From Acanthacorydalis orientalis (Eukaryota > Arthropoda > Insecta > Megaloptera > Corydalidae), in NCBI GenBank assembly GCA_034766995.1, contig CM068325.1:4041946-4105945 (forward strand): a stretch of 64,000 nucleotides of DNA, written 5' to 3'. Below are positions 1,221 to 63,720 of this stretch, one piece after another. The translations under genes and the position numbers were made by a program. Within the stretch, counting starts at the first letter, position 1, and every line of letters starts with the position of its first letter. The notes below the pieces were generated by a model that saw nothing but the letters and a program-made list of their open reading frames with translations, did not search any database and had not been told where the DNA came from.

Positions 1221-1720
1221 GATCGATTAAAACTAGTTCTGGATCAAAATAGGGTCAGTGTCTGGGAGAAATATCAATAATACACAAGGATTTCAAATTT
1301 CAGACCTGTATTTGAAACGATAAGTCGACAGGACAGCTTTAAATCTTTGCCGAATGGACAGAGTATTGAATTATGAATAATTTTGATTAGTACAAATCTT
1401 TGTATGCTAAGATATATGCCTATAATTTATGGTAGAGTGCCGGATCTCTTCTAAAAAAAATCACCAATACTTCCATAGCTCCGTATGTCAAGGTACAGGT
1501 CTGTGTCTTAAAATATAGTGTCTAAATTTTTCTAAAAAAAATCACGAGTCCTTATAGACGTATGAACAATTTCTATCCGAATAACGATAAATAAAACTAG
1601 TTTTGGGCGAAAACAGTGAGTGCTTGAGAAAAGAACAAATTATGTACAAGGATTTCAAAATTTCAGACTGTTTTCAAACAAGTAAACTATCAGACACCAC
1701 TTTAAAGTCTCACTGAAACG
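1221..1720 (+). repeat. Two-copy tandem repeat, period about 362-364 bp
   Basis: The word AAAACTAGTT occurs near 1229 and 1593. ACAAGGATTTCAAA occurs near 1284 and 1646. Shared text continues through the CAGAC(C)TGT and ACTTTAAA words that follow. The spacing is 362-364 bp, about twice the 182 bp common in other arrays here. Copies are diverged. A 108-codon reading frame at 954-1280 crosses the first copy and is probably not a gene. Confidence 0.7.
1430..1560 (-). repeat. Fragment of the ~80 bp satellite family, reverse orientation
   Basis: Between the two copies of the 364 bp repeat lie two units with TCTAAAAAAAATCAC at about 80 bp spacing, plus CAGGTCTGTGT. These match the reverse complement of the T-tract/ACAGGCCTGTATT family seen at 21.2-22.9 kb. 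Divergence is high. Confidence 0.5.
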
Positions 1721-2200
1721 GACTGTATGTTAAATCAGGGACATTGTTACTCAGTTTAAGTACAGACACTTATAAGAAAACGTATTTCAGATCAGACAGT
1801 CGGTAAGAAATTAATTAATTATTTGAAGTTTCAGACAATTACTGAAAATGATATCGAAAAGCCTGTTCAAAAGTTTCTTCAACATTAACATAGAAGACTG
1901 TATTTTTTTTAAATAAATAACTTTTTTTCTGATAGAAATCTACCGGAGTTTGTTAGAAACATGTGTGGGATAAATGCGCGTCGTTTCTGAAAGAAGTTGA
2001 AAGGGGCTGAATCAAAGATTTTCAAGACTGGAACATGCCAGTGCTGACCGGATTGCTTGGGGTCGTTCTGGACTGATCTCAGCTAGTTTCAGGATAAGTT
2101 GGGTCTTATTACACCCGGTCAAGTCCATCAGAGTTGATTTTTCGGCACGTTACGGAACACTGGAGCGTTTCGAGGCCTCGAGACCGGTCCGTACCGACAT
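1720..2200. other. Unassigned AT-rich DNA
   Basis: No repeat, RNA gene or credible coding region is seen. Short ATTAATTAATTA and poly(T) tracts occur near 1810-1930. Confidence 0.5.
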
Positions 2201-2480
2201 TTAGGTCCTCACTCTACACATGTATGCGTGTGTGAGCGGACGTGAGACGGAGAACGAGCGAGAGAAACGGGACGAGCGATTTTTTCCGACCGAATATCGA
2301 ATTTCTTTTCATTCGACCTTAACGAACCCGTACACAAAACCGTGTGTCCCTGTCTCTGTGCGTTTGTGTGCGCGCGTGTGCGTCTGTTTATATTTTTGTA
2401 TATTTGTCTCGGTTCCGATCCCGTCCGGTTCGATCGTCGTCCTCGTCCCGTCACGTCTGTTGTTTACTTGAAATTTGAAA
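2200..2480. other. CpG and GT-rich low-complexity stretch
   Basis: The stretch is rich in GTGTG, GCGCG and CGTCC words. Reading frames on both strands translate to low-complexity Arg/Cys/Val runs, which is typical of spurious frames in GT-rich DNA. Confidence 0.5.
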
Positions 2481-2640
2481 TATTAATTTAGCGAGAGTAA
2501 ATAAATTCACCAAGTAATTTGCGACGAACTTTCGACTCGCGAATACGTGTATACATTTTTTATATTTGTAAATGGAAAATTTACTTTTTTTCGCCTTTCA
2601 TTTTATTACAAGTATGAATTTTAAATATGCACTCGTCGCT

Positions 2641-2692
2641 ACACACACACACACACGTGTATAAGCAGGTTCGCACGTGCGTGTGTGTGCGT
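2641..2692. repeat. (AC)n/(GT)n inverted microsatellite
   Basis: Eight AC units are followed by GTGT and then a GTGC/GTGT run. The AC and GT halves can pair, and alternating purine-pyrimidine DNA can adopt Z-form. Confidence 0.8.
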
Positions 2693-2789
2693 TTGTAAAA
2701 TTCACCTCATTTGCATTTACTTTACGAATACAAGACGTTCATAAATTATTCAAATTATGTATATTCCGTCACCAATATCGTATTACCGT

Positions 2790-3110
2790 TACATATTTAC
2801 GGTCCTTGTCGGTACGGGACGACGGGGACGTCCGGATCGCCGTCCCTGAACAGGATCGACGCCGCGCACCGTCGCCGCTAATCGAAATCTTCACGGATTC
2901 CCGTCCGACAGTCGAACGGGCCGGATGCGCGAGCCGAGGCACGAACAAACACACTGAACACGGTACGGATACGTGGACGACGGTGTCTGAATTCGAACCG
3001 GCGCCGATTCATTTTTAATGCGGACTCGGCGTCCGGCGCGCGCTTCTAATTCATTAATGAGACACTGAAACGATTCAGCGTTCAATTTAAGTACGCGACA
3101 AGTTTATTCG
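2790..3110. other. CpG-rich island with AT-rich 3' core
   Basis: The part at 2800-3045 is CpG-rich. It gives way at about 3046-3105 to an AT-rich core containing CTAATTCATTAATGAG and CTGAAACGATTCAGCG. A close match to the second word (CTGAAACGATTCAACG) recurs at about 13828. The core has the look of a homeodomain-type regulatory element, but this is inference. Confidence 0.3.
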
Positions 3111-3145
3111 TGTCCGTGCCTGTGTGTTTTTCGGGAGAGCAGCGA

Positions 3146-3204
3146 GGATAGAGATAGATAGATAGATAAATAGATAGATAGAGAGCGAGAAAGAGAGAGA
3201 CGGT
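3146..3204. repeat. (GATA)n/(GA)n microsatellite
   Basis: A run of GATA units with one AAAT interruption passes into GAGAGA-rich sequence. Confidence 0.9.
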
Positions 3205-3399
3205 CCGGAATGTCTGGCTGTGAAACATTGCTCGGACGCTGTCGCATCGTTTATTAATAGAAATGTACGGTTACAGTTTCGAGCGCCTCTCTTGGATTGG
3301 AAAACTGTTAAAAGTATTTTTTCTTAAGAAAATACAAACACTACAAGAGTGAATTTATCAGAAATCTCATCGAAATATCATGATAGAAACTTAACAGAA

Positions 3400-61262: not shown

Positions 61263-61379
61263 CTGCGGGAAACTTCTTAAAAGTGTCTTGGGAGAACGTT
61301 TGAAAGAGACTTGTCCGACAGTGAGATCAGAAAAACTCCTGTACATCGATTCGACATCACAAAAATCATCTCTCCTTCA

Positions 61380-62160
61380 AATCTATCAACAGGCAGAACA
61401 TTCACCATCTAAAATAATTCCATAAACAAGCCCCGAGAATCGACAATACATCCATACGATACTTTCTGCTTCAACCGAACCTCAATCCTGGCCTTAACTC
61501 GAATAACATTTCACAGAAAACCCCTACGTCAGGACAATCTCTTCTTGTTTAAATCTACTTACTATTTTACCCTTAAAACCTAACTCAATCGACACAAAAG
61601 TCCTTATAAATAGAACCTACATCACTCTCAATCTTTTTCAAAACAATTCTTAATCATCGATTCTACGTCCATCCAGTCTCCTTTCTTCAAATTTACTCAC
61701 AAGATTTCACTTCGGACCTAACGGAAAACTTATAAAGTCCCTGTACATCGAGCTTACATTCCATTCTACAAGAATTCAGAATACAGAATTCTCATAAAAC
61801 TCTCTACAATTCGATACTTAATCAGTGTAGTCTATTTTTCTTTAAATCTACTTGCAGGCCTGTCCTTAAAATTAAAAATAATTCTTATAAAAAGTCCCAG
61901 GATTCGATTCTAAATCAGTGCAGTATTTTTTTCTTTAAATCTACTCAAGGCCTGGCTTGATATCCTTGCAGAATTCTCACAATAACGATCAAAAAACTGA
62001 TTCTGCGTCAAGAATCGACTCTAGTGTAAATACACTCACGGGTTTGGCCACAAAAACGGACACACATTTCATAAAAAGGCTTGCAGTTTGATTCTTTGTC
62101 AGTGTAATAATTTTTTCTTTAAATCGACTTACAGGTCTGGCTTTAGAATATGAAAAAGTA
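61380..62160 (+). repeat. Satellite array S, ~92-bp monomer
   Basis: ATCAGTGTAGTCTATTTTTC (61821), ATCAGTGCAGTATTTTTTTC (61914) and GTCAGTGTAATAATTTTTTC (62100) are separated by 93 and about 186 bp. Each is followed by TTTAAATCTACT and an AGGCCTGnCCTT block. Earlier, weaker copies reach back to about 61380. Confidence 0.85.
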
Positions 62161-62175
62161 TGGCGAATTCACCCT

Positions 62176-62225
62176 ATACATATATATATATATATATATA
62201 TATATATATATATATATATATATAC
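62176..62225. repeat. (TA)n microsatellite
   Basis: About 23 TA units at the right end of array S. Confidence 0.95.
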
Positions 62226-62387
62226 AGGTATGTAAAGCACGAGTGTATGTTCAAGGGTATAAACGAGCCACCCTCCTCTCAAACTGTACGCATTGATGGG
62301 TTGATTCGTGCAATTCGCGAAATAAGCGAAAAAAAACAGTCTGTCCGCGTTGCGAGCTGCTCTTCACGATTTTTTATTCGTGTGTTT

Positions 62388-62407
62388 CTCTGTGTGTGTG
62401 TGTGTGT
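62388..62407. repeat. (GT)n run
   Basis: About nine GT units. Confidence 0.85.
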
Positions 62408-62584
62408 ACGAGCGAGACGAGACCATACCTGTGTGTAAAAAGGCATTGCATGCGAACAGGCTACAATTCAGAGACGGTAAGTATCCGCACTGTAACCGGA
62501 AACGTGGGAAATGGGCCACGATTTAATAGTAGGTGTCTGGGTGCCGGTGCGGTTTTCGCAGAGAATGTCCGCGGGGAAAATGAC

Positions 62585-62655
62585 GCGAGTCGCGATGTCT
62601 TAGCGAGTCGCGATGTGTTCGCGAGTCCGCGGGGATTTTTACGCGAATCGCGAAC
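62585..62655 (+). repeat. 18-bp tandem repeat, GCGAGTCGCGATGTnTT
   Basis: Units start at 62585, 62603 and 62621 (the last diverged to GCGAGTCCGCGGGGATTT), with a further ACGCGAATCGCGAA echo. The period is a multiple of three and lies in an open plus-strand frame (62396-62704), so the peptide has a six-residue repeat. The frame is otherwise unsupported. Confidence 0.8.
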
Positions 62656-62749
62656 GGACAAGTCGTACAGATCGAAGAATAGTTTGGTCGTCGAGGAGCT
62701 GTAGCCGAGTTCGATGCTGTGATCTTTACAGGAATTAGTTGTCAGTTTC

Positions 62750-63720
62750 TAAACATCGACTATACAAAAATAAAGAGGCCTGTACTGACACTTTAACCAT
62801 TTTTGTATCTTTTCTCAAACAGTATCTAAAGTATATAGCACTTTCTTTGCAAATAACTCGTTAGAACAATTTTTAATCTTAAAATTGAATACACCATGGG
62901 AAAGACTGATCAATTTTGAATATATGTTATCACTTTTATTCTTTTCTAAAAATAAATATGCCCGTATTGACGCTTTGAACATTTTCGAATATTTTCTCAA
63001 ATTACACTAAAGTGTATATTCATTTTCTTACAAATAACTTATCAGAAAAAAATCAAAACTGAAAACTGAGTACAGTTTTATAAAGACCAAAAAAATTTAT
63101 ACATTTGCCATTCATTTTATTCTGTTTTAAAAATAAACAGGTCTGTACTAACACTTTAAACATTTTCGAAAATTTTCTCACATCACACTTAAGTATTTTT
63201 CCTTGAAAATAACTAACCAGAAAAATTACAGCCTCGAAATTGTGTCTACCGTCAAAAAGATAAATAAATTTTGTACACTATCGATTAATTTCAATCTCCT
63301 TAAAAAATAAGTAGGCCCGTAATGACACTTTGAACATTTTCGAATATTTTCTCAAGCCACACTAAAGTCTACATCAATTTTTTGCAAATAACTTATCAAA
63401 AAAAAATCAGAACTTAAAACTGAGTACATATTTAGAAATACAAATAAATTTAATATACTACACATAAATTTCGTCCCGTTTTAAAAACAAACAGGCGCGT
63501 ACTACACATTTCCGTATCTATTCACAAATATCGTCAACGATCATGTTCGTCCTTTTTATCAAATTACACGGTCACTAATCTCTCTAACTTAAAAACCGAA
63601 CAGATTATCGAAAAGGGCATTATATTCTGTACTTTTCATATAAATTTCAGTCTAGTTCGAAATCGGACAGGTCCGTATTAACACTCAGAACAATGGACAT
63701 TTTATCAAAACTTGTACAGT
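62750..63720 (+). repeat. Satellite array T, period 174-181 bp
   Basis: CTAAAGT-type words in CACACTAAAGT start at 62826, 63007, 63188 and 63362 (spacings 181, 181 and 174), with a last diverged unit near 63530. Units share AAAAATAAACAGGTCTGTAC, TGACACTTTGAACATTTTCG, AATATTTTCTCA and GCAAATAACTTATCAGAAAA. Copies are clear though AT-rich. Confidence 0.9.

What the first reader, a model, noticed from the sequence alone, without database searches (positions are those of the whole stretch)
1221..63720. Many different satellite families share one length rule
At least fourteen arrays have different sequences, yet the periods I can measure cluster. Array A gives 181-190, C 183-191, H 196, I 171-185, K 183, Q 163-169, R 162, S 185 (2 x 92) and T 174-181. 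The 24.6 kb pair gives 188, and the 1.2 kb pair 362-364 (about 2 x 182). Satellites near nucleosome-repeat length are known in many animals. A single 64 kb window with so many separate short families at the same length is unusual. It suggests either repeated amplification under a nucleosome-length constraint or descent from one ancestral ~80-92 bp module.
Basis: partly seen in the sequence, partly recalled or inferred. Interest (0 to 1): 0.8.

Follow-up and report, generated by a model that had tools for sequence, protein, structure and literature searches.

The report
Local nucleosome-length tandem repeat arrays
This stretch of the smallest large chromosome of an unnamed animal, probably an insect, holds many short, old, mostly unrelated tandem repeats whose units are often about 183 letters long, near the DNA length of one nucleosome; that preference is known elsewhere, but the local crowding and a hint that lengths fall on whole turns of the helix are worth a test.

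Summary
The arrays are real: 22 blocks in the window, with autocorrelation peaks at 81, 162 and 183 bp. Families are fewer than claimed: profile searches join five window arrays into one 81-bp family, three into one 183-bp family and two into a ~226-bp family. Lengths are wider, about 71-302 bp; after merges, 15 of 31 families in 129 kb of the region lie at 160-196.5 bp and 7 at 181-184.5. The feature exceeds the window: samples at C13 3.94-4.31 Mb show it, most other stretches less. Families searched genome-wide stay local or almost wholly on C13, though that search misses diverged copies. Best reading: locally born, locally spread, decaying satellite arrays with nucleosome-scale birth size, a known preference (Tribolium, oyster, Meloidogyne). 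Extra: unit lengths favour multiples of ~10.2 bp (n=19, p=3e-5; n=12 after collapsing, p=0.008). This is post hoc, its small pre-stated replication failed, and Tribolium and Locusta lack it.

The parts
1215..1755 (+). pair of the 81-bp family (alpha), lag 364
   Evidence: relatives at L014 8258-9879, 15022, 16448, 17777, 21137
3594..4414 (+). array, unit 182 bp; no relative in held sequence by profile; one consensus match to L012 (z 5.5) not followed up
9631..10269 (+). weak, irregular repeats (TCGAT-rich), no clear single period
14376..14970 (+). array, lags 191 and 183; consensus match to 53682 (z 5.8)
15022..15413 (-). alpha family, reverse orientation, lag 233
16448..16925 (+). alpha family, unit 162 = 2 x 81
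17777..18547 (+). alpha family, lag 235
21137..22942 (-). alpha family, largest array, unit 81 with 244-bp triplets
26287..26802 (+). spaced pair: 128 bp at 91%, lag 275, with AGAT-type simple sequence; matches at L015, L014 and L025 and weak ones on other chromosomes
26839..27178 (+). spaced pair of 80 bp at lag 260
30855..31239 (+). two copies, lag 196
33530..34628 (+). 183-bp family (beta), unit 182
   Evidence: whole-genome search finds only itself and 36618-37079
35320..35771 (-). beta family, reverse orientation
36400..37079 (+). beta family, unit 183
37847..38864 (+). gamma family, unit 212; relative with lag 203 at L015 7395-8362
41528..41997 (+). array, unit 183 = 2 x 92
43194..44348 (.). 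repeats matching on both strands, lag about 228; profile also matches 41528-41997
46505..48382 (+). delta family, diverged, lags 204-238
49547..50184 (+). delta family, second block
50405..52702 (+). long, strongly diverged array (about 60% identity), lags 174-203
53682..54500 (+). array, unit 165 (328 = 2 x 164)
56136..56717 (+). array, unit 81/162, not alignable to alpha at the threshold used
61332..62156 (+). diverged repeats, lags 93, 184, 277
62766..63732 (+). Omega family member, lags 174 and 181; relatives at C13 3.94-4.21 Mb

Best explanation
The window is part of a domain of one small chromosome (sampled from 3.94 to 4.31 Mb of C13) where short satellite-like arrays are born, spread over short distances in both orientations, and then decay. 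A new array starts when a segment of about one nucleosome's length is duplicated (rolling-circle copying of a small circle, slippage or unequal exchange), grows to a few copies, and then gathers substitutions with few length changes. The shared length is mostly a birth-size bias plus a low indel rate, rather than common ancestry of all arrays. Shown here: the arrays, their families, both orientations, local or chromosome-limited spread of the families searched, the length mode. Inferred: the birth mechanism and the nucleosome link.
For: 22 array blocks in the window; 48 arrays in 129 kb of the domain, 33 families as first counted, 31 after two more joins, 15 of 31 at 160-196.5 bp and 7 at 181-184.5. 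Tandem sequence covers 6-62% of 5-kb window pieces and 9-52% of seven other domain samples, against a mean of about 5% (0 in 6 of 12) in 10-kb stretches of C1-C12. Beta: only itself and its neighbour genome-wide, 2 of 2 candidates scored. Omega: 12 of 13 hits on C13, which is 1.7% of the genome. 50405-54500: itself, a stretch at 49476-49624, and 24 short simple-repeat hits, 25 of 25 scored. 62766 array: itself and one C13 hit. Both orientations within alpha, beta and Omega. Few indels.
Against: No nucleosome map, expression data or relatives' genomes. The genome search is less sensitive than the profiles: it missed the reverse beta array 1-2 kb away and the window's own Omega member, so 'local' holds for recognisable copies only. 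The alpha/14376 search scored 40 of 509 candidates and was swamped by a dispersed element; most other families were not searched genome-wide. Background is one 10-kb stretch on each of C1-C12, all at 3.0 Mb and three with runs of N, plus six on C13; two of the twelve (15% and 27%) are array-rich, and C13 at 1.0, 3.0 and 3.8 Mb is intermediate (11-12%). Elsewhere too 5 of 17 arrays measure 169-186 bp.
Confidence: 0.6

Rival explanations
1. One ancestral satellite. All arrays descend from a single ~183-bp (or 81-92-bp) repeat that once filled this region and has diverged past recognition; equal lengths are inherited.
For: Linking grew as sequence was added: 62766, L014 4685/6739, L023, L024, L025, L026 and then L027 3743 joined into Omega only through intermediates. 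Seven families still share 181-184.5 bp. ACAGGCCT occurs in 5 array families (alpha, 50405, Omega, 61332, L027a) and not in 137 kb elsewhere. Three further consensus pairs reach z above 5.
Against: Most families stay unlinked after iterated nhmmer with decoys; beta, 3594, 14376, 53682 and F1319 show no profile match to Omega; units of 122-165 and 190-285 bp need extra steps. Contexts around AGGCCT show no clear alignment beyond the motif by eye.
Confidence: 0.2
2. Length constraint by selection. Nucleosome-length or whole-turn units are kept because they phase nucleosomes, and off-length arrays are lost.
For: Length mode at about 183 = 18 turns; quantisation at ~10.2 bp in this domain; slightly fewer indels than dispersed repeats.
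Against: The indel deficit is about 1.4-fold in openings and 2-fold in bases, with overlapping alignments; internal 10-bp periodicity is not shared by all families; arrays are short and old.
Confidence: 0.15
3. Central repeats of non-autonomous rolling-circle transposons (Helentron/HINE type), as in oyster, where short arrays are carried by elements.
For: Short arrays, similar unit length; two dispersed elements lie in the window at 19688-20165 and about 28347-29038.
Against: Families searched with nearly all candidates scored have no dispersed copies and Omega stays almost wholly on C13. The two dispersed elements do not coincide with arrays.
Confidence: 0.05

Closest known systems
Low- and moderate-copy satellites of Tribolium castaneum (PMC10218199: abstract, passages, Table 1)
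   Same: [quoted passage not shown] moderate-copy ones lie mainly on euchromatic arms.
   Different: Here about 30 families crowd into 129 kb sampled from under 0.4 Mb of one chromosome and are strongly diverged; the paper reports mainly transposable elements nearby; no whole-turn pattern there.
Chromosome-specific satellites of Drosophila X and dot chromosomes, 1.688 type (PMC4079201 abstract; PMC7072490 passages)
   Same: Satellites enriched on one chromosome, partly as short arrays, with fast turnover.
   Different: There a few families dominate the chromosome; here many families share a length. No targeting protein or regulatory role was tested here.
Oyster satellite-like repeats in Helentron elements (PMC7492417 abstract; PMC8268682 passages)
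   Same: Short arrays; 160-180-bp units dominate.
   Different: Oyster arrays are scattered over the genome, many inside elements; the families searched here are local.
Meloidogyne satellites (PMC9673304 passages)
   Same: Most units (47 of 83) at 50-90 or 170-190 bp.
   Different: Different phylum; genome-wide catalogue, not one domain.

Membership tests
Satellite DNA (broad sense: non-coding tandem repeats) | head-to-tail copies | tested here: met
   three window cases are spaced pairs
Satellite DNA (broad sense: non-coding tandem repeats) | non-coding | tested here: inconclusive
   10 of 92 long frames scanned with Pfam, none above a curated cut-off; no Rfam family reaches its gathering score in the window; the other 82 frames were not scanned
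Classical satellite DNA | long homogenised arrays | tested here: not met
   blocks of about 0.2-3.2 kb, mostly diverged
Nucleosome-length satellites | unit near 160-195 bp | tested here: met
   for 15 of 31 families; the other 16 lie outside
Nucleosome-length satellites | nucleosomes phased on the unit | not testable with these tools
   no MNase data
Chromosome-specific satellites (1.688 type) | copies limited to one chromosome | tested here: met
   Omega 12 of 13 hits on C13; beta 2 of 2; at the sensitivity of that search
Chromosome-specific satellites (1.688 type) | few families spread along the whole chromosome | tested here: not met
   many unlinked families; Omega hits cluster at 4.14-4.15 Mb with single hits at 3.18, 4.28, 5.48 and 5.79 Mb
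Helentron/HINE central repeats | dispersed elements with constant flanks around the array | tested here: not met
   no dispersed copies for families; alpha inconclusive; others not tested
Centromeric satellite with CENP-B box | NTTCGNNNNANNCGGGN in the units (motif recalled) | tested here: not met
   1 match in the window, 0.68 expected, at 38961 outside the arrays

The most novel reading that the evidence does not exclude
Unit lengths in this domain are quantised to whole turns of nucleosomal DNA (multiples of ~10.2 bp: 81, 132, 153, 172, 183, 244, 285). The arrays would then be fossils of small DNA circles cut from nucleosomes: circle sizes reported for human plasma show 10-bp steps and peaks at 202 and 338 bp (PMC9578701, passage), rolling-circle copying would make the tandem array, and reinsertion nearby would give local families in both orientations.
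Probability: 0.1. Interest if true: 0.78.

Novelty: new member of a known kind. Interest (0 to 1): 0.4.

Why it matters
Why so many unrelated satellites have nucleosome-sized units is an old question. A domain where dozens of separate births may be preserved side by side, with copies from about 60 to 91% identical, would let birth size be measured apart from later selection. If the whole-turn pattern holds on the full chromosome, it would point to circular nucleosomal DNA as the source.

Tried and rejected
Helical periodicity of the whole window. Autocorrelation showed a comb at ~10.2 and 20.3 bp, which at first looked like a phased genome domain. It sits inside arrays (power 90-fold over local shuffles, 0 of 40 as high) and is weak outside them (3-fold, 1 of 40). 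Within units it is not universal: present in alpha, 50405, 56136, 62766 and F1319, absent or of opposite sign in others. Pooled over 18 families it does not exceed non-array window segments (123 of 200 draws as high), though it exceeds most draws from C1-C12 (5 of 200 as high). Word recurrences outside arrays show no 10.2-bp spacing. So it reflects array lengths and a few families.

A 20-bp ancestral motif: 6-base words recurring at lag 20-21 are 1.9 times as many as at control lags, but no particular word stands out.

CENP-B box and Rfam gave nothing. Taxon: CpG observed/expected of 1.64 first suggested Hymenoptera to me; a COX1 piece read from a nuclear copy looks insect-like but not clearly hymenopteran by my recall, and the PDB search did not separate orders. 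The order stays open. Gene content of C13 was not measured: the kinase search did not complete.

Whole-turn test on other species: Tribolium, 46 of 57 listed lengths (70-330 bp kept), R = 0.06 at 10.2, p = 0.85 (at 10.0, p = 0.07). Locusta, the 30 lengths of 70-330 bp in the first part of the table, R = 0.28, p = 0.10, phase half a turn off. Both negative.

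Full report
WHERE IT IS. The window is C13:4041946-4105945 of a 547,984,239-base genome in 27 contigs. C1-C12 are 62.3 to 19.8 Mb and C13 is 9.51 Mb; the eight contigs of C14-C21 asked for are under 0.22 Mb. CpG observed/expected is 1.64 in the window. A COX1 fragment read with code 5 from a nuclear copy looks like an insect to me (recalled, not tested).

CHECK OF THE OBSERVATION. Self-blastn finds 75 same-strand pairs at lags 30-1500, which merge into 22 blocks in the window. 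With microsatellites masked, autocorrelation rises at 81 (+7.5 s.e. over the local median), 162 (+4.3), 183 (+6.0), 203, 236 and 245. Three window cases (1215, 26287, 26839) are spaced pairs rather than contiguous arrays.

FAMILIES. I built profiles from arrays, searched all held sequence, iterated, and used reversed sequence as decoy (without decoy). Alpha, an 81-bp module: 1215-1755, 15022-15413 (reverse), 16448-16925, 17777-18547, 21137-22942 (reverse) and L014 8258-9879, with lags of 81, 162, 235 and 244. Beta, 182-183 bp: 33530-34628, 35320-35771 (reverse), 36400-37079. Gamma: 37847-38864 (212) and L015 7395-8362 (203). Delta: 46505-48382 and 49547-50184. Omega, 172-186 bp: 62766-63732 and arrays in L014, L023, L024, L025, L026 and L027, in both orientations, over about 258 kb. 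The rest stay single at these thresholds. Possible further joins: 41528 with 43194, L025 2108 with 26287 (the decoy also scored well there, 3.5e-12, so low-complexity sequence may be the cause), and three consensus pairs with z above 5: L023 2787 with L023 4154, 14376 with 53682, 3594 with L012. So the family count is an upper estimate. Some consensus units came out short (alpha 59 bases, 14376 154), which lowers its power.

EXTENT AND BACKGROUND. Diverged (<80% identity) tandem sequence covers 3-62% of 5-kb window pieces, 46% and 9% of the two flanks, and 16% of L019 at 4.30 Mb. All tandem sequence covers 21-52% of L023-L026 at 3.94-4.21 Mb. In 10-kb stretches at 3.0 Mb of C1-C12 all tandem sequence covers 0-27%, mean about 5%, 0 in 6 of 12; three of the twelve hold runs of N. 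C13 at 1.0, 3.0 and 3.8 Mb shows 11-12%, at 5.0, 7.0 and 8.5 Mb 2-3%.

GENOME-WIDE COPIES. Beta: itself and the neighbour, 2 of 2 candidates. Omega queried with L025 1-1250: 13 hits, 12 on C13 (4.14-4.15, 4.28, 3.18, 5.48, 5.79 Mb), one 51-bp hit on C11, 10 of 10 scored. 50405-54500: itself, window 49476-49624, and 24 short hits to one simple repeat, 25 of 25 scored. 61332-63732: the arrays match only themselves and one C13 place (4336466); the other hits fall outside the arrays, mostly on an 18-bp minisatellite and TA repeats (6 of 7 scored). 14376-22941: alpha hits only its own cluster, but a dispersed element at 19688-20165 filled the list, 40 of 509 scored, so this is inconclusive. In an earlier 20-kb query a dispersed element at about 28347-29038 filled the list likewise, 39 of 4194 scored. 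These searches miss diverged copies: one search did not report the reverse beta array in the window, and one search did not report the window's Omega array.

LENGTHS. Across 129 kb of the domain I count 48 arrays in 33 families; 17 of 33 have lags of 160-196.5 bp and 9 lie at 181-184.5. joins L027 3743 to Omega and, less surely, L025 2108 to 26287, which leaves 15 of 31 and 7 of 31. In an earlier list 13 of 26 families lay at 160-196.5 against 3.6 expected from a log-uniform 75-330 bp. For comparison: 5 of 17 arrays elsewhere in this genome, 15 of 46 Tribolium and 8 of 30 Locusta satellites of 70-330 bp. A review states that most satellite units are of nucleosomal length or 5-10 bp (PMC8122249, passages), so the preference itself is known.

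WHOLE TURNS. Unit lengths concentrate at multiples of ~10.2 bp. One value per family with at least 20 supporting words and half of all words at the lag: n = 19, R = 0.74, p = 3e-5; the best of all periods from 8 to 14 bp is 10.21, and 0 of 1000 jittered sets reach it. With all ~183 values collapsed: n = 13, R = 0.66, p = 0.0035, scan-wide 0.049. Without the 275-bp spaced pair: n = 18, p = 7.5e-5; collapsed n = 12, p = 0.008; with further merging n = 10 or 11, p = 0.004 to 0.021. Over 16 filter settings the collapsed p runs from 0.0022 to 0.043, while arrays elsewhere give 0.19 to 0.53 (3-16 arrays). Against this: the period was noticed in the same data; family labels are mine; a looser list gave p = 0.03. 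I wrote down a prediction and fetched 8 kb more. Only one of five new arrays met the stated support, 139.6 bp = 13.7 turns, and it failed; the four weaker ones were 174.2, 182.0, 144.9 and 184.2. Tribolium and Locusta show no such pattern. I hold it at 0.10. Two searches for a published rule of whole-turn satellite lengths (listings only) showed no paper on it.

BIRTH OR MAINTENANCE. If selection kept the length, indels should be rare in arrays. Gap openings per mismatch are 0.059 in array copies and 0.085 between dispersed repeats; gap bases 0.149 against 0.302 (52 and 31 alignments). The difference is small, the alignments overlap, and the most diverged band reverses it for openings. I read the length as mostly set at birth.

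MECHANISM. Most likely: a nucleosome-scale segment is duplicated in place or through a small circle, amplified to a few copies, carried short distances with inversion, and left to decay. Shown: arrays, orientation, local families, divergence. Inferred: duplication route, nucleosome origin of size. Circles with peaks at 202 and 338 bp and 10-bp size steps are described for maternal plasma (PMC9578701, passage), which makes the circle route plausible, not shown. For Locusta, rolling-circle replication has been proposed for the birth of long satellites (PMC4935994, figure legend).

VERDICT. Real and denser than in most stretches sampled, but of a known kind.

Noticed in passing
window about 28347-29038: Dispersed element with copies on many chromosomes at 75-85% identity; not classified.
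   Followed up: partly
window 19688-20165: Second dispersed element, about 76-79% identity to copies on many chromosomes; not classified.
   Followed up: partly
window 62562-62653: 18-bp CpG-rich minisatellite; longer relatives at C2 60.058 Mb and C11 1.832 Mb.
   Followed up: no
G000, C13 and other contigs: Many nuclear copies of mitochondrial COX1: 88 hits (96 of 123 candidates scored), 13 on C13, which is 1.7% of the genome; five C13 hits cover the same stretch (about model positions 257-385), suggesting amplification on that chromosome.
   Followed up: partly
window pieces, flanks, L020: High CpG observed/expected (1.43-1.85 in 5-kb window pieces, 2.11 at C13 5.0 Mb) and higher GC than most stretches sampled from other chromosomes.
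   Followed up: no
domain arrays: AGGCCT is 32.6 per 100 kb in the domain against 8.7 elsewhere; ACAGGCCT occurs 13 times in 129 kb and not in 137 kb elsewhere; 12 of the 13 lie in five array families, 8 of them in alpha.
   Followed up: partly
window 43194-44348: Repeats that match each other on both strands, i.e. partly palindromic units.
   Followed up: no
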